Virus record (IMG/VR): IMGVR_UViG_3300037086_000474
Span: 48,463 to 112,462 of that record
Source: a virus
Reading direction: 5' to 3' (one strand)
DNA length: 64,000 nt
Both the position numbers and the translations under genes were made by a program. Each line of letters begins with the position of its first letter. The stretch's first letter is position 1. Below the pieces are notes generated by a model. That model did no database searches, was not told the DNA's origin, and saw nothing but the letters and a program-made list of their open reading frames with translations. Below are positions 15,184 to 63,700 of this stretch, in pieces.

Positions 15184-16437
15184 CTATTGTAATCTTGCGA
15201 TTACGTTTTCCTGTTTCATAGAAGCATGGCTTGGAACTAATCGCTTAGATCTAGAGGTCTTCTTCTCCACAGGCTTTACTTCGGGAGGTTCCATCCCTAG
15301 TTGTTTTATTCCGTAATTTGCCAGATTTGTCCCAGCATTTTGGTCTCTATCTAAATAGGCACCACAGCTGGGACAATTCCAACTTCTTTCCTGCAGCATC
15401 AAATCCTTTTTTACATACCCACAACTCGAACAAGTTTTACTGGATGCAAACCACTTGTCCGCTTGAATGAGTGTTTTATCATTCCATAGTGTTTTGTATT
15501 TTAGTTTCTGTACGAACGTTGCATATCCAAGATCTGATACTGATTTTCCAAGTTTTAGTGCCTGTTTCATTCCGGCAAGTGATAAACTTTCTACCACTAT
15601 AACATCATATTCTTTTACCAGTCTCAAACTCAATTTGTCTATGAAATCTAGTCTCTGTCGTGCAATATGCTCATGAATTTTAGCTAATCTAATTCTAGCT
15701 TTTTCTTGATTTTTACTTCCGTTGATTTTCCGAGAGTATTGTCTTTGTTTTTTAGCTAGAACAGCTTGTGAGTTTCTGTAATGTTTCGTATATTCCGGTG
15801 AATTCCCATATTGATCTACATAAAACTTGTCCAATGAACAATCGAGTCCAAGAACTTTTATATCTTGATCTAAGATTTGATGGCCTTTGAAATCTTGTTC
15901 TCCTTTGAACAAAATGGAAGCAAAATATTTTCCAGATGAAGTTTTTGTAATCGTTATGTTTTTGACTTCTGCCTCATAGAACCATGGTTTTATCACCCTA
16001 TGTCTGAAGTTTATGGATTTTATTTTAGGTAACTTTATCGTTTTTTCATTCAAGTTGATTTCAGAGCGCATTGTTCTATACGAACAAGTGTGTTTTTTCT
16101 TTTTGAAATTAGGATATCCAACTTTTTGCCCCTTTCTCATACCTTTTAAAGATTTGAAAAAGTTCATATAAGCTATTGATAGGTCTATTCTAGATTGTTG
16201 AAGAGCGACGGCATCCGCCTCTTCCAACCATTCAAACTCTTTTTTATAATCCTTTTCAGTTTTATGTTTATGTTTGTAGAGTTCAACTTTATTATTTTTC
16301 AGACGTTCATATGTTTCAATTCTCTCTGCCAACATCTGATTGTACAGAAATCTACAACATCCAAGAGTTTTATTGATCTGAATTTGTTGCTTTGAAGTAG
16401 GGTAAATTCTGACTTTTAGAGATCTATTTATGTTCAT
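15184..16437 (-). CDS. tnpB: TnpB-family RNA-guided nuclease (IS200/IS605 OrfB)
   Basis: A 417-residue TnpB, of normal length for the family. The N-terminus KVRIYPTSKQQIQINKTLG is typical of OrfB. The RuvC-like residues are present: D199 in GLDCS, E283 in VVESLS, and D363/D365 in LDRDQNAGTNL. A CxxC...CxxC zinc finger lies at C336, C339, C355 and C358. TnpB proteins cut DNA guided by an RNA transcribed from the end of their own element. No tnpA lies nearby, so this copy depends on a TnpA elsewhere or acts on its own. It lies antisense between two co-oriented phage genes. It looks intact. Confidence 0.9.
   Translation of the reverse strand: MNINRSLKVRIYPTSKQQIQINKTLGCCRFLYNQMLAERIETYERLKNNKVELYKHKHKTEKDYKKEFEWLEEADAVALQQSRIDLSIAYMNFFKSLKGMRKGQKVGYPNFKKKKHTCSYRTMRSEINLNEKTIKLPKIKSINFRHRVIKPWFYEAEVKNITITKTSSGKYFASILFKGEQDFKGHQILDQDIKVLGLDCSLDKFYVDQYGNSPEYTKHYRNSQAVLAKKQRQYSRKINGSKNQEKARIRLAKIHEHIARQRLDFIDKLSLRLVKEYDVIVVESLSLAGMKQALKLGKSVSDLGYATFVQKLKYKTLWNDKTLIQADKWFASSKTCSSCGYVKKDLMLQERSWNCPSCGAYLDRDQNAGTNLANYGIKQLGMEPPEVKPVEKKTSRSKRLVPSHASMKQENVIARLQ
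15189..15204 (-). repeat. Hairpin at the 3' end of tnpB
   Basis: On the tnpB strand GTAATC-GCAA-GATTAC forms a perfect 6-bp stem with a GCAA loop, ending about 5 nt before the stop codon. In IS200/IS605 elements the right end and the guide RNA scaffold lie at the 3' end of tnpB, so this may belong to them. The exact element boundary is not determined. Confidence 0.4.
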
Positions 16438-19902: not shown

Positions 19903-19930
19903 TGGGGCTGTCAAGCCCCATTTCTATTTC
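19903..19930. terminator. Intrinsic terminator, probably bidirectional
   Basis: TGGGGCT-GTCA-AGCCCCA is a perfect 7-bp GC-rich stem followed by TTTCTATTTCTTT. It ends the rightward operon and lies at the 3' end of the convergent homing endonuclease gene. Confidence 0.75.
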
Positions 19931-21414
19931 TTTACAAAAACACTATTACCACAGTCCCATATTCTATCCCAACCATTCAATTGCATGTTTTCCCATTCAG
20001 TCAACTTTGGATTAAAGATTTTCAGTTTTTTGGATAATTTGTGCTTCTGGAATTCAATTCTGTTGAATCTATGAGTGTAGTCAGTGTAATAATAGCTTGG
20101 GGAAGAATTTTCCATTTCAATGAAGCCGTTTTTTGAGTAGGTAGATCCTGAGAAGTATCTTTTGTCACAATAACTTATAATGCTTTTTGGATGATATTGT
20201 GTTTCGAAATATTTGAGCAATCTCGAAAATCCTCCCATGATCATCATGTCTTTCTTATTACAAAATCTCGTGATCTCCCACTCATATTTTTTGTTGAATC
20301 TTGGTTTAGAAAGACTCAACAGAGAAACCAATTTGCCCTTGTGACGGAGACCAATATGAATTTTTCCAGCAGTAAATCCTTGGAGATGATTTGTATCAAC
20401 GAAAACTCTAGCTTCTTCACTAGAAATCTCATCTATGATGCAGCTTCTGGCACCAATTTTTGAGGTGGTTAGACCCATGATTGTTCGAATAATTGATTCT
20501 ACTATTTCTCTTTTCTCAATCCATTCATCCTCAAAAATATGAATCAATTTGATTCCATGTTGTTCGCAAAGATTAGTTTTCTGAAGATGTCCAGTTTTGT
20601 TTCCGCCATTCAGTTCTGAATGCCAATAGATGCCATCGAACTCTATAGCTAATTTATGTTTTGGAAGATAAATGTCGAGTTCATATGGTGGTATAATTTT
20701 CTTAGTGTTTTCTTCTATAGAAGAAATGGAAAGTTGTTTCACAAAATCAACAACCTGTTTTTCAACAAGAGAACTTCCATTTTGTTTTGGAAAACAGATT
20801 GGGCATCGGGGAAGAGTGCCGTTGGCGTAGTAAAACTGAAAAACGGTATTACAGGTGATACATCTCCAATCAAACTTTTGGTATTTTTCCTTTTTATCAA
20901 GATATTCTTGTAGATTAAAAAGAGGAACAACTTTATCGAATGTTTTGAATTTGAGATATGAATTCTTCAACTTTATTTTTTTATATTTAGGATTATTGAA
21001 ATTTGTTTCAATACCATATCGAGTCAACATGGTCTGTTTCTTTTTTTCCTTGACACCCACTATTTGAGAAGGGTTATCTACACCATATTTTTTTTGAATT
21101 CCTTGTTTGATTCTAGAAGAAGCATTAGCTGATCCATATTTAGCTATTTTAGTAATCGTAAAACCACATTCTCTGCAGAGAATCTCTTCTTCAAAAAATT
21201 TAGAGTTAGAATTGAATTTTTCAGTTTTCTTCTTTTTGCAATGATGACAGATATAAACTATCTGATCTCTTTGTTTGATTGGATAGATTTTATTGACTAG
21301 GAGTGTTTGAAATTTTTTCAGACGACAGATTTGTTCACTTTTTTCTATCGATTTGACCTTAATGTGCTTACTGAATATGATTACTTCTAATACCATTAAT
21401 ATAAAATATGCCAA
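19924..21414 (-). CDS. Vsr-like homing endonuclease with zinc motifs and C-terminal GNAT-like domain
   Basis: 496 residues; an in-frame ATG at 21396 is an alternative start. In order: a CHHC...CREC zinc motif near residues 56-82; repeats of the type KYGVDNPSQ and RYGIETNFNN, common in phage homing endonucleases; a second zinc motif CITC...CPIC; then a Vsr/EDxHD-like nuclease core with ELDIYLPKHKLAIEFDG, YWHSE and IFEDEW. The last 170 residues (NHLQGF, CDKRYFSGSTY, NGFIEME) resemble the acetyltransferase-like domain fused to some such enzymes. It is antisense and inserted between phage genes, as expected for a mobile free-standing endonuclease. Confidence 0.75.
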   Translation of the reverse strand: MAYFILMVLEVIIFSKHIKVKSIEKSEQICRLKKFQTLLVNKIYPIKQRDQIVYICHHCKKKKTEKFNSNSKFFEEEILCRECGFTITKIAKYGSANASSRIKQGIQKKYGVDNPSQIVGVKEKKKQTMLTRYGIETNFNNPKYKKIKLKNSYLKFKTFDKVVPLFNLQEYLDKKEKYQKFDWRCITCNTVFQFYYANGTLPRCPICFPKQNGSSLVEKQVVDFVKQLSISSIEENTKKIIPPYELDIYLPKHKLAIEFDGIYWHSELNGGNKTGHLQKTNLCEQHGIKLIHIFEDEWIEKREIVESIIRTIMGLTTSKIGARSCIIDEISSEEARVFVDTNHLQGFTAGKIHIGLRHKGKLVSLLSLSKPRFNKKYEWEITRFCNKKDMMIMGGFSRLLKYFETQYHPKSIISYCDKRYFSGSTYSKNGFIEMENSSPSYYYTDYTHRFNRIEFQKHKLSKKLKIFNPKLTEWENMQLNGWDRIWDCGNSVFVKK

Positions 21415-28660: not shown

Positions 28661-28954
28661 ATGAAAGCCTATCATCTCCAATGGAATTACGAGGATTCAG
28701 ATGCCGATCCTCAAACCGGGGAACAAATACAAATACGGGTGCCAATTGATAGCTACGCCTTTGTTGAAGGAAATTATACTTTAGAATTCGACTTTAGCAA
28801 CGGTGGAGAAAAAGTAATGATCTGGGCAAATAACTCAGAACAGGCCGATAAGATCATCAGAAATTTTGAAAAAATCAAAGGGGCTCTAATTGACGAAAAC
28901 ACTAAGCATTATTGTATTGAATGCCTCTTCGAGAGAGATTACGAAATAAAATGA
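28661..28954 (+). CDS. Hypothetical protein upstream of terL, 97 aa
   Basis: 97 residues. The N-terminal half is beta-like and acidic (MKAYHLQWNYEDSDADP), and the C-terminal helix contains ADKIIRNFEKIKGAL and ends YCIECLFERDYE. It overlaps terL by ATGA. It may belong to the small-protein family with C-terminal helix. It is too small and not similar enough to be called a small terminase subunit. An AT-rich TAAGATATATTTATA sits just before its ATG. Confidence 0.55.
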   Translation: MKAYHLQWNYEDSDADPQTGEQIQIRVPIDSYAFVEGNYTLEFDFSNGGEKVMIWANNSEQADKIIRNFEKIKGALIDENTKHYCIECLFERDYEIK

Positions 28955-31905
28955 CTAAACAAGATCTAGCTGAACAACAACTAAAAGAAAACTACAAGAA
29001 ATATGGATTTGATCTTCCATGGGATAAGATTCGATGGGGAGGGGCTCTAATCGAAACTACTCTTAATGATGGAAGTGTGGAGATTGTAGACAGATTAGTT
29101 GAATTCACTCTTTGTTCTCTATATTCTTTCTATTACATAGATAGATATTGCTGGACCGTTCCATCAAACGGTGGGCCAATACCACTCAAACTCTTTTATT
29201 TTCAAAAAGATGCTCTGGGGCTTTTTCAGAAATACAGCAAAGTCATATTCAGAAAGTGCCTGACCGAGGACAACTATATCCAAACAGACAGAGGATTGAT
29301 TTCAATCAAGGAAGCCAAAGTTGGAGACAAGATCCTAACTCTCAAGGACGGCGTTCCTTATTGGGATGAGATTGTTGATTTTTGGGAAAATGAAGAAAAA
29401 CAGGAAGTCGTTAAAATTCATCAATACAATGGAAATATGTTGGAATGCAGTTTAGATCATCCAACAATGACGACAGAAGGGTGGAAAGAGGCTAAGGATA
29501 TAAAGAAAAATGACGAATTAATTTCTTTTTTTGAAAAAGAAACATTTGGAGATTTTGAACTTGAATCTGATGAATTAGCAAAACTCATTGGCTTTTACAT
29601 AGCTGATGGCAAAGCAAGAAGAACCCATTTCACTAATACAAACAAAAAGTACGCTAAAGAGGTATTTGAGGCTTCCAAGCTTTTCAAAGATATAAAACCG
29701 CGCATGGTAACTCATATAAACACTAATCCAAGACATAAAAAATATGGATATAGTGTTAGCATGTCTAATGGAGATCATTCTGGCAGCTACACATCTAGTT
29801 ATCTCAGATTTGCTGATAGGTTTAATTTTGGTAAAATTGGAAGAGAGAGATTTCTTTCAGAAGAAACTATGAATCTGAATAAACGGCAAATGTCGATTCT
29901 TTTGAATCGATTATATGCTGGAGATGGATGGGCCACTATTGGAAAACGTTCAAATAGTGCTGGTGCTCTTTTTGTTGATTTTGGTGTCGGAATAGGAATG
30001 CCCAACAAAAAATTCGCATATCAAGTGCAGAACATACTAAATACTAAATATGGCATAAAAACAGCTATCAAATATGAAGATAGATTTTGGAGAGTTCAAA
30101 CAGTTGATAAGTATTCTGGTTTAAAGTTTGCTAAAGAGATTGGCATCCAAGGTAAAATTAGTGATAGATTCATCAATAGGGCAGAGAAATCTATAAAATA
30201 CATAGGAAAAAATCCAAATAAAGTTGGAAGAATAAAAAACATAGGAAAAAAAACAACGTATGATATAACAACTAAGACTGGAACATTTTTGGCTAATGGA
30301 ATTTTAGTTCACAACTGTCGCCAGGTTGGTGCCTCTGTTCTTTCTGGATGCTATGCTCTTTGGAGAGCCAATTTTCAATTGTCACAGAACATCAAAGTCA
30401 TTTCTTTGAAGATTGATGATGCTCGCGAATTCAAAGAGAAGACAATTGATCTCAATTATCTCAACATGCCAGGATTTTTGAAAACTGTTGCAACCAGAGA
30501 CGGAAATAACAGAACTACTCTGAAGCTCAAAAATGGCTCAATGATAAAGATTCTTCCAAAGTCTAAAAATGCAGGTCGTGGTGGTACTCCTTCACTCGTA
30601 ATTATAGACGAGGCAGCATTTAATGAATGGATGGATCATATTTGGAAATCCATTGAACCATCATTGGACAAGGGTGGAGACATCATTGTTATTTCGACGA
30701 CCAATGGTGTTGGAAATTGGTACCATCTTACATATTCTAGAGCAGAGACTGGAGAGAATGAATTTTATCCAATTCATATTCCATGGTGGAAATATCCTGG
30801 AAGAGACAACCCATGGCTTCAAGATGTGCTCGATGGAAAAATACCAACAGACCAAATAGAAGATTTTGTTGCAGTTGAAGAATTAAAACAGCTCGCCTAT
30901 GAAGGCGACCCAAGAAAAGCTCCATGGCTTTGGAAGAGACGACATAATGCTAAGAACGAAAAAGACTTCCATCAAGAAATATTAGCAGAGTTTATTGGTT
31001 CTGGTGATACGGTCACGACTCCAAAAACAATCATGAGATTAGAGGCCGAAAAAAGAGATCCAAGATGGGTTGATCGTATGCCGAATGGAGAGGGACCATA
31101 TGCTGGACTTTGGTGCTGGGAAGACAGAAAAGAAGACCGTTATTACATGCTCACTGCTGATACAGCAACTGGTCATGGAAGAGATTTTTCCACCTTTCAA
31201 GTTATGGACATTTTCAACAGAGAGCAGGTTGCAGAATTTAGATATCAAATACCAACGGATAGTTTTGGAATGCTGATAAAGAAAATGGCTCGTTATTACA
31301 ACAACGCCTTTGTGGTAGTTGAAACAAACCACCCTGGACCAGCAACTTTTAATGAAGTCTATAAATCAAGAATAGATCCATACCCTAATGTATATGTGCA
31401 AAAAAGAGGCAAGGATTTGGCATCTTGGGAAACGACATCAAAGACAAGAGTAAAGTTAATAGAGGCTTATTTTAGAGATTTGGAAAATGGATCCATTCAT
31501 GTTTATTCAAGTCGACTTTTGGAAGAAATCAAGACATTTATTTGGTCAGATTCCGACAAACCAGAAGCTCTGACTGGATACAATGATGACTTGGTTATGT
31601 CTCTTGCTATGTTCTGTCATTTGAAAGACAAACAGCAAACAGCAATGCCTCTTATTCTGAGCTCATCGTACAGTAAGGCTAGTGAATATTCTGAAACAAT
31701 GCCAGATTTGAAATGGGCTGAAAGAGAGCGACAGATTACTGAAATGTATGGAGTAAGTCTGGAAGATTGGTACTGGGTGAGTGGGAATAAGGCTCCAGAT
31801 GAGTATTTAAAAATGAAGGAGCGGCAGGAGCAAGATAAAGAAGAGAGGCAAGTAGTTTTAGAAAAGCCTCCAGAGTGGTTGACTAAGATTGTAAAGGATA
31901 AATAA
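28951..31905 (+). CDS. terL: Terminase large subunit with in-frame intein
   Basis: 984-residue precursor. I chose the ATG at 28951 (ATGA overlap with the previous gene). Removing the intein (residues 103-455) leaves 631 residues, normal for a T4-type large terminase. ATPase motifs: a Walker A-like KCRQVGAS formed only after splicing, Walker B VIIDEAAF (D553, E554) and coupling motif ISTTNG. Nuclease motifs: D737 in TADTATGHG, E791 in VVVETNHPG and D879/D880 in GYNDDLV. TerL pumps DNA into the prohead and cuts it. Without splicing the ATPase site is split, so the intein must be removed for packaging. Confidence 0.92.
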   Translation: MTKQDLAEQQLKENYKKYGFDLPWDKIRWGGALIETTLNDGSVEIVDRLVEFTLCSLYSFYYIDRYCWTVPSNGGPIPLKLFYFQKDALGLFQKYSKVIFRKCLTEDNYIQTDRGLISIKEAKVGDKILTLKDGVPYWDEIVDFWENEEKQEVVKIHQYNGNMLECSLDHPTMTTEGWKEAKDIKKNDELISFFEKETFGDFELESDELAKLIGFYIADGKARRTHFTNTNKKYAKEVFEASKLFKDIKPRMVTHINTNPRHKKYGYSVSMSNGDHSGSYTSSYLRFADRFNFGKIGRERFLSEETMNLNKRQMSILLNRLYAGDGWATIGKRSNSAGALFVDFGVGIGMPNKKFAYQVQNILNTKYGIKTAIKYEDRFWRVQTVDKYSGLKFAKEIGIQGKISDRFINRAEKSIKYIGKNPNKVGRIKNIGKKTTYDITTKTGTFLANGILVHNCRQVGASVLSGCYALWRANFQLSQNIKVISLKIDDAREFKEKTIDLNYLNMPGFLKTVATRDGNNRTTLKLKNGSMIKILPKSKNAGRGGTPSLVIIDEAAFNEWMDHIWKSIEPSLDKGGDIIVISTTNGVGNWYHLTYSRAETGENEFYPIHIPWWKYPGRDNPWLQDVLDGKIPTDQIEDFVAVEELKQLAYEGDPRKAPWLWKRRHNAKNEKDFHQEILAEFIGSGDTVTTPKTIMRLEAEKRDPRWVDRMPNGEGPYAGLWCWEDRKEDRYYMLTADTATGHGRDFSTFQVMDIFNREQVAEFRYQIPTDSFGMLIKKMARYYNNAFVVVETNHPGPATFNEVYKSRIDPYPNVYVQKRGKDLASWETTSKTRVKLIEAYFRDLENGSIHVYSSRLLEEIKTFIWSDSDKPEALTGYNDDLVMSLAMFCHLKDKQQTAMPLILSSSYSKASEYSETMPDLKWAERERQITEMYGVSLEDWYWVSGNKAPDEYLKMKERQEQDKEERQVVLEKPPEWLTKIVKDK
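29257..30315 (+). mobile_element. LAGLIDADG intein in terL, 353 aa
   Basis: It begins at Cys103 (CLTEDNYIQTDRGL, block A) and contains SLDHPTM (block B). The homing endonuclease core has two motifs, LIGFYIADGKA and LYAGDGWATI. It ends TYDITTKTGTFLANG followed by ILVHN (blocks F and G), with +1 residue Cys456. Both splice junction residues are intact (Cys1, terminal His-Asn, +1 Cys). The insertion splits lysine from CRQVGAS in the ATP-binding motif, a typical conserved target. Both LAGLIDADG motifs look complete, so the nuclease may be active. Confidence 0.92.
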
Positions 31906-59976: not shown

Positions 59977-60864
59977 ATGATGAAACAGGAGAGAACTGTG
60001 AAGAAGATTGCTGTCACAAGCGGAGCTGCTCTGATTTCCAAGGCCAAGTCGGCCCCTGCCAAAAAGGACGAGTTGTATGATCTCTACACCATGTGTGCAG
60101 AGCTCAACACCACGAATTCCATGAATGGAAAGCTGGAGATCCTCAAGAAGTATCCCCAGTGCAAACAGCTTCTCACCTACACCTACGATCCATTCAGACA
60201 GTACTATGTGTCTTCTGCAAACCTTCAGAAGCGCCAGGACCTGGTCGAATACACGAAGTTCTCTCTCATCGAAATCCTCGACAAGCTCGCAAATCGCGAA
60301 GTCACTGGCCACAAGGCCATTGCTCTTGTGAATGGGTACGTCTTCGCCAATCTCCAGTATCAGGAACTCATCTACAACATCTTCAAGCGAAACTTGAAGA
60401 CGCGTGTAGATTCGTCCCTCATCAACCGCATCTGGCCAGGAACGGTGCCCGCGTTTGATGTCGCCCTCGCCTACAATTACGAACACCGGAAGGACAAGGT
60501 TGATTTCACCAAGCAGAAGTGGTTCGCTTCGCGGAAGTTGGACGGCTGTGTCTCGGGTGATTCCATCGTAGAGTTTGAAGATGGGTCGAAGTCTACAATG
60601 CGTGAAGTTGTCGAGGGACGAATCAACAGGAAAATCAAGTCATACAATGACGTCACCAAGAAGATTGAATACAAAGAGATCACGGCCTACGTCAAGAACG
60701 GTGACGACATCCAGGAAAAAGGTTATCAGTGGTATGAGATTGTGTTGGAAAATGGAGTCAATCTCAAGCTAACTGGAAATCACCGGGTTTATCTTCCTGA
60801 ACTGAAGTGTTACCGGCGCGTCGACGAACTTGAAGGGAGCGAAGAACTTCTGTTGGACATCTAA
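59977..60864 (+). CDS. ATP-dependent DNA ligase N-terminal part fused to split-intein N-half
   Basis: 295 residues. Residues 1-190 look like the N-terminal part of a phage ATP-dependent DNA ligase, ending at KWFASRKLDG, where K187 would be the AMP-accepting lysine of motif I (KxDGxR). At residue 191 the ligase stops and the N-terminal half of an intein starts (CVSGDSIVEFEDG). There is no C-terminal ligase domain in the window, so it must be supplied by a separate gene carrying the intein C-half, spliced in trans. Start: ATG 59977 directly after TATAAT, or GTG 59998 behind AGGAG. An abandoned pseudogene is the alternative. Confidence 0.75.
   Translation: MMKQERTVKKIAVTSGAALISKAKSAPAKKDELYDLYTMCAELNTTNSMNGKLEILKKYPQCKQLLTYTYDPFRQYYVSSANLQKRQDLVEYTKFSLIEILDKLANREVTGHKAIALVNGYVFANLQYQELIYNIFKRNLKTRVDSSLINRIWPGTVPAFDVALAYNYEHRKDKVDFTKQKWFASRKLDGCVSGDSIVEFEDGSKSTMREVVEGRINRKIKSYNDVTKKIEYKEITAYVKNGDDIQEKGYQWYEIVLENGVNLKLTGNHRVYLPELKCYRRVDELEGSEELLLDI
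60547..60861 (+). mobile_element. N-terminal half of a split intein (Int-N), 105 aa
   Basis: It begins at Cys191 of the ligase open frame with CVSGDSIVEFEDGSK (block A) and contains LKLTGNHRVYLPE (block B, with the conserved TxxH). It ends about 35 residues after block B at a stop codon and lacks blocks F and G. The length of 105 residues fits split inteins. No Int-C is visible in the next 3 kb. Confidence 0.85.
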
Positions 60865-60865
60865 C

Positions 60866-61759
60866 TTATTTCAACCATTCATTCAAAATGTCTTCATATT
60901 CTCTTCTGCCTATTTGTGAGCACCATACTACAACAACACGATAACCAAAACTTTTTAGGTGTTCCTCTCGAACTTTGTCGAGATACCAAATCTCAGCAGC
61001 CGTGATCTCACCCTTGAATCTTTTTATTATGTCGGTGCCTTTGTACCTATCTGGATTGGCGTGCCACTTGTCTCCATTTACTTCTATTATCAACTTTCTA
61101 TCTTCAATCAGTATGTCGGGTCTTGGAGAGTATATTCTACCAAGTTGATCATTGAATTTAGAAAATCTCGTTCCATCTTCAGAAACAAAATCAATACCTT
61201 TCTTTTCCAAAAATCCTTCTATAATTTTGTGTCCTATAGATTTTCTGCCTGCATTGCTTTTTCTCCAAGGAACATTTGTCGGATTTAGAACACCATGGTG
61301 CTTATATAGTGTGTCTATTGATTTCGCTTTGATTTCTTCTAGCTGAAAAACATTCTTCACTCCATACTTTCGTTCTACGGTTGCGTTTCTTTTATAGTAT
61401 GATGTGGTGTTTTTGGACAGGGCATTTACTTTACCATACTTTTCAAGACAGGATTTTTCGTACTTTTCTCGAGTGGCTGGATTGTTCATAGCTTCTTTGA
61501 CTGATTTCGTCTTCAATCCAAATCTTACGGCATATTCTATGACTGTTCCTGCATCTATGATGGGTGAAAGATGTAGTGATATGGCTATGTCGTTTGCAGT
61601 TCTGTTGTTTTCAATATATTCTTTCTGAAGAAAAGCCAGGGTCAGGTTGTCATCACGGATTTTCTTAGTATTGCTTATCCAAGTGGGGCACTTGCCCTTA
61701 TGACCATGCAGAGCATTTTTAGAGTCGAATATTTTACCACAGGCGGTACATTTATACAT
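60866..61759 (-). CDS. Vsr-like homing endonuclease with N-terminal zinc finger
   Basis: 297 residues from the ATG at 61759, behind AGGGAGA. Frames extending to 62059 lack support. An N-terminal C2H2/CCHC-like finger (YKCTACGKIFDSKNALHGHKGKC) is followed by KYG-type repeats (CLEKYGKVNALS, KYGVKNVFQ) and a Vsr/EDxHD-like core (SPRPDILIEDRKLIIEVNGDKWHANPDRY split at PDIL and EVNGDKWH). It ends with VVVVWCSQI. It ends 2 nt after the Int-N stop. Endonucleases of this type are known to accompany split-intein genes in environmental phage sequences. Confidence 0.75.
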   Translation of the reverse strand: MYKCTACGKIFDSKNALHGHKGKCPTWISNTKKIRDDNLTLAFLQKEYIENNRTANDIAISLHLSPIIDAGTVIEYAVRFGLKTKSVKEAMNNPATREKYEKSCLEKYGKVNALSKNTTSYYKRNATVERKYGVKNVFQLEEIKAKSIDTLYKHHGVLNPTNVPWRKSNAGRKSIGHKIIEGFLEKKGIDFVSEDGTRFSKFNDQLGRIYSPRPDILIEDRKLIIEVNGDKWHANPDRYKGTDIIKRFKGEITAAEIWYLDKVREEHLKSFGYRVVVVWCSQIGRREYEDILNEWLK

Positions 61760-61897: not shown

Positions 61898-62485
61898 ATG
61901 AAGGCAAAACAGAGGAAAGAGATTGAAGAGAATCCCGCTGCTTGGATAAGAAGTACAGCAAAGTTCTTCTGGAACGTTTTTCATGACGAAAGCGACTACA
62001 TTCCTGCTTTCATAGAGAAGTTGCTTGCTGGTGGCGGTGGCAATTCCATGTTCAATCAAAGTTGGGTGTTTACATCTTCTCTCTTTGTTCAGAGAAGAAT
62101 CTCTAGTGAGGCAGTAAAAGTATTGGAAGAGCTTGGTCTTTCAAAGAACAACATACCTCATGATTTGTTGCATGATAATGCAAAGGGAGAAGCAGACCGG
62201 AAAGCAATTGGAAAGCTTCTGCATGAGGACCATTGTCCAGGAAACGTGAAAGTCATGCACTTGATCAGGGACAAGATACGGTCGTACCCTCTGACTGCAA
62301 CCTTTGAAGACATCGCAGATGACCTTTGTGAGTTTTTGAAAACTGTCCAGACTCTGGACATTATTACAGTCAAACAGGACGATATGAGAACCTTGAAGAG
62401 CAGCGGCTTTGTGAAGAAGCAAAAGGACATGTTTACTCACGAGGAAAGAGATGCTCTTCTAGATGACGAGTGGGAGGATATGTAA
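61898..62485 (+). CDS. Hypothetical protein, 195 aa
   Basis: Soluble, helical in the C-terminal half (DDLCEFLKTVQTLDIITVKQ), with LHEDHCPGNVKVMHLIRDKI, a His/Asp-rich stretch that could be metal-binding. It has GGGGNSMFNQSWVFTSSLFV in the N-terminal part. Possibly an enzyme, but I cannot name it. It is transcribed from the promoter at 61824 and ends before a terminator. Confidence 0.5.
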   Translation: MKAKQRKEIEENPAAWIRSTAKFFWNVFHDESDYIPAFIEKLLAGGGGNSMFNQSWVFTSSLFVQRRISSEAVKVLEELGLSKNNIPHDLLHDNAKGEADRKAIGKLLHEDHCPGNVKVMHLIRDKIRSYPLTATFEDIADDLCEFLKTVQTLDIITVKQDDMRTLKSSGFVKKQKDMFTHEERDALLDDEWEDM

Positions 62486-62665: not shown

Positions 62666-63700
62666 ATGGAAGGATATTCAAAATTGAGATCTGAAAAAGC
62701 AAAGAAATACGATTTTTGGCCCACCCCAGAAATTACAAAAACAGATTTATTTTCTCTAATCAAAGATTTTTCAGGAACATGGGTAGAAAACTCAGTAGGG
62801 CAAGGAGCGCTCCTTTCAGCACTTATTGACAAGGGCGTCAAGCAAAATAAAATAACTGCAATCGACATTGACAAGGATAACATAGACCATTGCAAAGAAC
62901 TGTGGCCCCATGTGAATTATATTCATGGAGATTTTCTTGATAGCACTGGAAAATGGGACAACTGTGTCTATAATCCACCATTCACTAAATGGGAAGAGTT
63001 TACAAGAAAATCATTGGAATGTTGCGAAAATCTCTATGCAATATTGCCCAACAATTGGGCCCATAGTCCTAGAGCAAGGTATTTTGATTTACAGTCTCGT
63101 ATTGTAAATGAGGTGTATGACAGAAAATATTTTTGCGAGTTTGGTATTCAACAGTGTATCTCTCTTTTCGTGATAAAGAAGGATCACTATGTAGATCACA
63201 GCATTGCAAAAGAAAAATATTTTCATGAAAAAGATTTACTAGCAAAAGTTGAAAATGGACAAACAACAGATGCATTCAAACAAAAACTGGTTGATCAAAG
63301 ATTTGGAATAATTGTCCCATGGGGACCAACATTCAATAATAGTGGATGTCTTCCAAGAGGAACTAAAGTGAATTTGGGTCCCGTTGTTCGTGCAATTCAT
63401 CTATCAAACGAATTTTATGTAGACGAAAACTTTGTCATGTACAATGGAAAACTAAAATCTGGTAAAGACTTTGAGTTTCTCTATATTAGACGTCATACTA
63501 ACGATAGAGTACAGAAGGGAAGCCGAAGAGACGCTGTTTGGTGTCTATATTGTGAAAATGAAAAGGAATTAGATAAATTGATTGATTTTTATATAAACTA
63601 TCCAGTGGATTTTCATTGTAAGTTTTCTAATTGGAACTGTTCAAAACATACTATAGTACCAGATTGGTATGCAAAAAAATATGAGTCACTTGAGAAGTGA
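62666..63700 (+). CDS. Adenine-specific DNA methyltransferase-like protein, 344 aa
   Basis: The order of motifs is that of N6-adenine DNA methylases: SAM-binding VENSVGQGALLSALIDKG (motif I-like), acidic ITAIDIDKDN, then catalytic motif IV NPPF in VYNPPFTKW. The remainder, with target-recognition potential, is not recognisable. The specificity is unknown. Such enzymes protect phage DNA from restriction. The ATG at 62666 has only a weak upstream purine stretch. Confidence 0.7.
   Translation: MEGYSKLRSEKAKKYDFWPTPEITKTDLFSLIKDFSGTWVENSVGQGALLSALIDKGVKQNKITAIDIDKDNIDHCKELWPHVNYIHGDFLDSTGKWDNCVYNPPFTKWEEFTRKSLECCENLYAILPNNWAHSPRARYFDLQSRIVNEVYDRKYFCEFGIQQCISLFVIKKDHYVDHSIAKEKYFHEKDLLAKVENGQTTDAFKQKLVDQRFGIIVPWGPTFNNSGCLPRGTKVNLGPVVRAIHLSNEFYVDENFVMYNGKLKSGKDFEFLYIRRHTNDRVQKGSRRDAVWCLYCENEKELDKLIDFYINYPVDFHCKFSNWNCSKHTIVPDWYAKKYESLEK

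What the first reader, a model, noticed from the sequence alone, without database searches (positions are those of the whole stretch)
59977..61759. Fractured DNA ligase: split intein inserted at the catalytic lysine, with a Vsr-like endonuclease beside it
Seen: the ligase-like frame stops after RKLDG and continues as an intein N-half of 105 residues that ends at a stop. No C-half follows. A Vsr-like endonuclease gene on the other strand ends 2 nt from that stop. Known: environmental phages carry genes fractured by split inteins with similar endonucleases, and the two halves are joined by protein trans-splicing. Inference: active ligase is made only after trans-splicing with a product encoded elsewhere, because motif I (KxDGxR) is cut in the middle.
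Basis: partly seen in the sequence, partly recalled or inferred. Interest (0 to 1): 0.85.

Follow-up and report, generated by a model that had tools for sequence, protein, structure and literature searches.

The report
Phage DNA ligase split by intein
A phage DNA-ligase gene stops at its active site and continues as half of a self-splicing "split intein"; at least 32 other viral contigs carry the same ligase cut at the same spot with both halves side by side, but here the second half is missing from an incomplete genome and the accompanying endonuclease gene points the other way.

Summary
ORF 59977-60864 is the N-part of an ATP-dependent DNA ligase up to SRKLDG, followed in frame by a 105-aa intein N-fragment with its own stop. 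A Vsr/EDxHD-type homing endonuclease (60866-61759, minus strand) ends 2 nt away. The stop is not an error: 32 viral contigs hold DNA ligases fractured at the same KxDG|xR bond, with Int-N fragments of about the same length. Four RNA ligases are fractured at or beside the same motif. In all 36 the order is N-half, endonuclease (sense, remnant or absent), C-half, on one strand. Near-identical ligases without the insert show exact insertion at GGN|TGY, and both exteins of fractured copies stay under purifying selection. One contig has a contiguous LAGLIDADG intein at this site. The nearest solved intein is split NrdJ-1. So this belongs to the known "fractured gene" arrangement.

The window locus is the exception. 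Its endonuclease is antisense, and no C-half exists in the next 3.1 kb or anywhere in the 112-kb contig. The contig is incomplete (no PolB or DnaB-type helicase found), so absence is not loss. A C-half encoded elsewhere, with trans-splicing required for ligase activity, is the best reading but is not shown here. C-half loss and a misjoin at about 60865 remain open.

The parts
59977..60546 (+). N-extein: N-terminal part of an ATP-dependent DNA ligase (T4 gp30-like, PHROG 114), ending SRKLDG
   Evidence: PHROG 114 E=4e-23; 59-60% identity to the ligase of L008, 43-56% to many others
60535..60546 (+). First four residues (KLDG) of ligase motif I KxDGxR, with the nucleophilic lysine
   Evidence: sequence; uninterrupted relatives read SRKLDGVRC or SRKLDGCRC
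60547..60864 (+). Int-N: 105-residue split-intein N-fragment (Cys1, block B TGNH) plus stop codon
   Evidence: PF01079 E=5e-7; profile of ligase Int-N fragments E=7e-46; alignment A3; nearest solved structure NrdJ-1 split intein E=1.3e-7
60866..61759 (-). Homing endonuclease: N-terminal CxxC...HxxxxC zinc-finger-like motif, DUF7487 region, C-terminal Vsr/EDxHD nuclease domain
   Evidence: PF24308 E=2e-10, Vsr weak; PDB profile hits Vsr 1odg/1vsr/1cw0 E about 0.007; Foldseek 1cw0 E=2.5e-4, I-Bth0305I 3r3p E=0.008; 38-46% identity to endonucleases lying between the halves of fractured ligases
60865..60865 (.). Junction of Int-N stop and antisense endonuclease stop: likely rearrangement breakpoint (or misjoin)
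   Evidence: in 31 of 31 relatives with a full-length endonuclease it is sense, and in most its end overlaps the C-half start
61898..62485 (+). 195-aa ORF of unknown function lying where the C-half would be expected
   Evidence: no Pfam, PHROG or INPHARED match
62666..63700 (+). Putative DNA methyltransferase gene, also downstream of the N-half
   Evidence: PHROG 799 E=1e-16

Best explanation
The gene is the N-terminal half of a fractured phage DNA ligase. Its product is a ligase N-extein ending in KLDG, fused to the N-fragment of a split intein. A separate protein, an intein C-fragment of about 40 aa ending HN fused to CR... and the rest of the adenylation and OB domains, is expected from a part of the genome not held here. 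The two intein fragments associate, splice the exteins and rebuild KLDG-CR, the AMP-accepting motif I. Until then neither half can seal nicks, because the lysine is in one half and the motif I arginine plus motifs III-V are in the other. The neighbouring Vsr/EDxHD endonuclease is the cognate homing enzyme that cuts intein-less ligase genes near the motif I codons and so spreads the intein. Here a later rearrangement turned the endonuclease round and separated N-half from C-half by at least 3.1 kb. Shown: the split N-half, the exact site, family-wide collinear C-halves, empty sites. Inferred: the C-half of this virus, trans-splicing, homing activity.
For: Ligase, Hint and intein profile hits. 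32 DNA-ligase contigs with both halves and the same split point. Rejoined exteins give KLDG|CRC exactly as in uninterrupted close relatives: 97-99% DNA identity upstream and 93% downstream of the seam for L230 versus L273/L268, 90-92% for L231 versus L277/L276/L281. dN/dS of fractured versus uninterrupted copies is about 0.03-0.09 (N-extein) and 0.09-0.14 (C-extein), so both halves stay under purifying selection. The window Int-N differs from relatives mostly at third codon positions, 0.60-0.72 against 0.22-0.39 at the other two, i.e. no sign of decay. Nearest solved intein is the split NrdJ-1. Endonuclease fold is Vsr/I-Bth0305I. The contig lacks PolB and DnaB-type helicase, so it is partial.
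Against: No C-half in 112 kb of this virus. In all 36 complete relatives the C-half lies within about 1.1 kb of the N-half on the same strand, so a distant C-half would be unprecedented in this family. No splicing was tested.
Confidence: 0.6

Rival explanations
1. Decaying remnant: the C-half was deleted in a rearrangement that also flipped the endonuclease. The N-half is a leftover, and the phage relies on a host or other ligase.
For: No C-half in the 112 kb held; unique antisense endonuclease and unrelated genes where the C-half is expected; T4-like phages can use host ligase (own knowledge).
Against: The N-half reading frame, intein blocks and codon-position pattern are intact; the genome is incomplete.
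Confidence: 0.2
2. Assembly misjoin at about 60865: the real locus is the ordinary N-half/endonuclease/C-half, and the contig joins the N-half to another stretch in the wrong orientation.
For: The junction lies exactly between two stop codons; all 31 relatives with a full-length endonuclease have it sense, with the C-half start usually overlapping its 3' end; the window endonuclease keeps an out-of-frame ATG about 12 nt before its stop end, as in L323 (weak); GC3 falls from 0.70/0.55 (ligase/Int-N) to 0.34 (endonuclease) and 0.28 (methyltransferase).
Against: No repeat or inverted repeat at the junction that would favour a misjoin; low GC3 also occurs in many other genes of this contig; in a simple fold-back artefact the sequence after the endonuclease start would be the N-half again, and it is not.
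Confidence: 0.2
3. A contiguous intein broken by a chance frameshift or stop at 60862, not a split intein.
For: None found.
Against: The stop coincides with the Int-N end of over 30 independent loci, and no intein C-part follows in any frame.
Confidence: 0.02

Closest known systems
Fractured genes with split inteins and Vsr-like homing endonucleases (Dassa et al. 2009, doi 10.1093/nar/gkp095; not held here, known from citations and own knowledge)
   Same: An enzyme of DNA metabolism broken by a split intein, with a free-standing Vsr/EDxHD endonuclease at the break, in environmental phages
   Different: Break at motif I of DNA ligase (whether ligase is among the eight enzyme types of that paper could not be checked); endonuclease antisense and C-half not adjacent in this contig
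NrdJ-1 split intein (PDB 8ubs, 9omb)
   Same: Best solved match of the Int-N profile, residues 8-103, E=1.3e-7; a naturally split phage-type intein
   Different: Inserted in a ribonucleotide reductase, not a ligase
Fractured DNA ligases of L138/L230, L213/L231, L233, L238, L183/L232, L089 and 26 other viral contigs found here
   Same: Same site KxDG|xR, homologous Int-N; same endonuclease family in 27 of the 32 DNA ligases
   Different: N-half, endonuclease and C-half collinear within about 1.1 kb on one strand
I-Bth0305I (EDxHD homing endonuclease, PDB 3r3p) and Vsr (1cw0)
   Same: Fold of the C-terminal nuclease domain
   Different: I-Bth0305I is, from own knowledge, a group I intron enzyme; Vsr is a mismatch-repair nicking enzyme
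Haloarchaeal ATP-dependent DNA ligase intein (PMC4071816)
   Same: Intein in an ATP-dependent DNA ligase
   Different: One archaeal case, not described there as split; insertion position not compared

Membership tests
Split-intein 'fractured gene' (Dassa-type) | Conserved enzyme ORF interrupted in frame by an intein N-fragment that ends at a stop | tested here: met
Split-intein 'fractured gene' (Dassa-type) | Intein C-fragment fused to the rest of the enzyme, in the same genome | tested here: inconclusive
   absent from the 112-kb contig; contig incomplete; present in all 36 complete relatives
Split-intein 'fractured gene' (Dassa-type) | Free-standing endonuclease gene between the two halves | tested here: inconclusive
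   endonuclease of the right family abuts the N-half but is antisense; the other border cannot be seen
Intein (HINT) N-fragment | Cys1, block B TxxH, Hint-domain profile | tested here: met
   C1, TGNH; PF01079 over cut-off
ATP-dependent DNA ligase | Motif I KxDGxR complete after splicing | tested here: inconclusive
   KxDG present; xR must come from the unseen C-half; in relatives the rejoined exteins give KLDGCR
Vsr/EDxHD homing endonuclease | Vsr-like fold with conserved acidic and histidine residues | tested here: met
   Foldseek to Vsr and I-Bth0305I; invariant D215, E226, D230, H233, D243 in A2
Vsr/EDxHD homing endonuclease | Cuts intein-less alleles at the insertion site | not testable with these tools
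   needs a cleavage assay

The most novel reading that the evidence does not exclude
After fracture the two ligase halves have come apart in the genome: the gap holds an inverted homing endonuclease plus at least two unrelated genes, or the C-half lies elsewhere altogether. Then an essential replication enzyme is assembled by protein splicing from unlinked genes, as known for cyanobacterial DnaE. With the LAGLIDADG cis intein (L207), the split loci with full, remnant or no endonuclease, and the empty sites, one insertion site would show every step from contiguous intein to dispersed gene halves.
Probability: 0.4. Interest if true: 0.65.

Novelty: new member of a known kind. Interest (0 to 1): 0.5.

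Why it matters
The locus led to a family of split inteins that target the nucleotidyl-lysine motif of covalent nucleotidyltransferases (DNA ligases of several types, and RNA ligases) in viral contigs. At this one site there are contiguous, split-with-endonuclease, split-with-remnant, split-without and empty alleles, some about 97-99% identical in flanking DNA. That makes the question of how split inteins and broken genes arise directly testable, and it supplies new candidate split inteins for protein ligation. It also bears on how a phage can afford a ligase that works only after trans-splicing.

Tried and rejected
Frameshift or assembly error at 60862: rejected by the shared split point. C-half hidden in the contig: tblastn with several C-half queries, Int-C profile, HN[CST] scan of all frames, phrog_114 and PF14890 found only the TerL intein. 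NAD-dependent ligase: none. Terminal repeats that would make the contig complete: none. Cellular genomes: Int-N profile patterns gave no relative. Orphan C-halves elsewhere: two pattern scans gave ligase C-halves that all have a collinear N-half wherever enough upstream DNA is held. L185, first thought to be a C-half at a contig end, has its N-half adjacent. Recent jumps of the intein between ligase types: the Int-N tree needs 5 label changes, one more than the minimum, so the intein largely follows ligase type. The AlphaFold model of P0001 was poor (pLDDT 66) and was not used. Dassa 2009 could not be read.

Full report
What is there. The window is bases 48463-112462 of a 112,462-bp viral contig. 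ORF 59977-60864 encodes 295 aa. Residues 37-191 match PHROG 114 (ATP-dependent DNA ligase, E=4e-23). From residue 191 the frame continues as CVSGDSIVEFEDG...LTGNHRVY..., a Hint/intein N-fragment (PF01079 E=5e-7), and stops. On the other strand, 60866-61759 encodes a 297-aa endonuclease with a zinc-finger-like N-terminus, a DUF7487 region and a Vsr-like C-terminus. I take ATG 61759 rather than the longer TTG frame because relatives in A2 start in the same region. Downstream lie a 195-aa ORF without relatives and a DNA methyltransferase, then the contig ends.

The split is genuine. I searched viral contigs for the same junction by protein, by DNA pattern (KxDG followed by an intein start; Int-C end followed by CR) and by alignment. 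One close case, L089, has an N-half ending KIDG|CLSGDS, an endonuclease 37% identical to the window's, then a C-half starting with about 40 aa ending LVHN|CRMILSV. A uniform profile search over the collected loci gives 32 distinct contigs with both DNA-ligase halves and 4 with RNA-ligase halves (PF09414: L325, L338, L195; L339 has no Pfam ligase hit and is called an RNA ligase by context only). L338 and L195 are split two residues later (KxDGxx|C). Most of the Int-N fragments are 101-108 residues, as in the window (105), and end at the same place. In all 36, both halves are on the same strand. The C-half frame opens 67-1073 nt after the N-half frame ends: 31 have a full-length endonuclease of this family between them, always sense (split into two ORFs by an in-frame stop in L180), 2 have a short remnant (L235, L228), 3 have none. 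In most endonuclease-bearing loci the C-half start codon overlaps the end of the endonuclease gene.

Empty sites and selection. Uninterrupted relatives read SRKLDGVRC or SRKLDGCRC. L230 and L273/L268 are 97-99% identical upstream of the seam and 93% downstream, and the insert sits exactly between GGT and TGC. L231 against L277/L276/L281 shows the same at 90-92%. The Cys at +1, needed by this intein type, is the natural residue of the empty gene. dN/dS between fractured and uninterrupted copies is about 0.03-0.09 for the N-extein and 0.09-0.14 for the C-extein, so the fractured ligases are kept functional. One contig, L207, has a contiguous intein with a LAGLIDADG endonuclease at the same site.

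Family. The Int-N profile finds the split NrdJ-1 intein first among solved structures. The endonuclease model (pLDDT 79) finds Vsr and the homing enzyme I-Bth0305I. These are the hallmarks of the fractured-gene arrangement named by Dassa et al. 2009, which I could not read here. The library holds no paper that I found describing ligases fractured this way, but subscription papers are missing, and ligase may be among that paper's eight enzyme types. No cellular genome gave a relative. In the Int-N tree the window falls in the clade that holds the other T4-type ligases, with weak placement inside it.

What is odd about this locus. The endonuclease is antisense and abuts the N-half stop, and no C-half follows within 3.1 kb or anywhere in the contig. 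The contig has TerL, rIIA and a late sigma factor, but no match to DNA polymerase B or DnaB-type helicase and no terminal repeats, so a good part of the genome is probably missing. One inversion of a segment lying between N-half and C-half would give the observed order and put the C-half just beyond the contig end; this is inference. Loss of the C-half or a misjoin at 60865 are the rivals. GC3 falls from 0.70 (ligase) to 0.55 (Int-N) to 0.34 (endonuclease), in line with a foreign endonuclease, but also with a misjoin.

How it most likely works. Each half alone lacks a complete motif I, so neither can form the enzyme-AMP intermediate (established ligase chemistry). Int-N and Int-C associate, splice, and yield KLDG-CR. 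The endonuclease is inferred to spread the element by cutting empty ligase genes. Confidence: genuine split-intein N-half of a fractured ligase, about 0.95; C-half encoded elsewhere in this virus and used by trans-splicing, about 0.6.

Verdict. A new member of a known kind, with a rearranged or truncated locus. The surprise lies less in the window than in the breadth of the family at one catalytic motif and the completeness of its intermediate states.

Noticed in passing
window 28921-31905: TerL gene carries a contiguous LAGLIDADG intein ending ANGILVHN|CRQVGAS, apparently at the ATPase Walker A region.
   Followed up: partly
contig G000:C1 1785-3503 (L002), outside the window: Complete eukaryotic-type DNA topoisomerase IB (N-terminal, core and C-terminal Pfam domains, E down to 4e-63) in a T4-like phage contig.
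   Followed up: partly
contig G000:C1 12721-22087 (L002/L003), outside the window: About a dozen small paralogous genes beginning MKxRxGFVSNSSSSSF.
   Followed up: no
L325, L338, L195, L339: RNA ligases (PF09414 in the first three) fractured at or beside motif I by the same intein and endonuclease family.
   Followed up: partly
L112:5000-7700, also L094, L096, L109, L120: A DUF6267 protein is split at KLDG|SPAV by another intein with a 439-aa ORF between the halves.
   Followed up: partly
L008:10470-10510: The closest ligase relative has lost about 30 codons just after motif I, with a frameshift; pseudogene, hidden insertion scar or assembly fault.
   Followed up: no
L235:6882-7010: Endonuclease remnant between intact ligase halves, which suggests that the split persists after endonuclease loss.
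   Followed up: partly
window 19924-21414 (-): A second homing-endonuclease-like gene (DUF7487, REase_MTES_1575) with a relative in L008.
   Followed up: no
window 15184-16437 (-): IS605 OrfB/TnpB-like gene.
   Followed up: no
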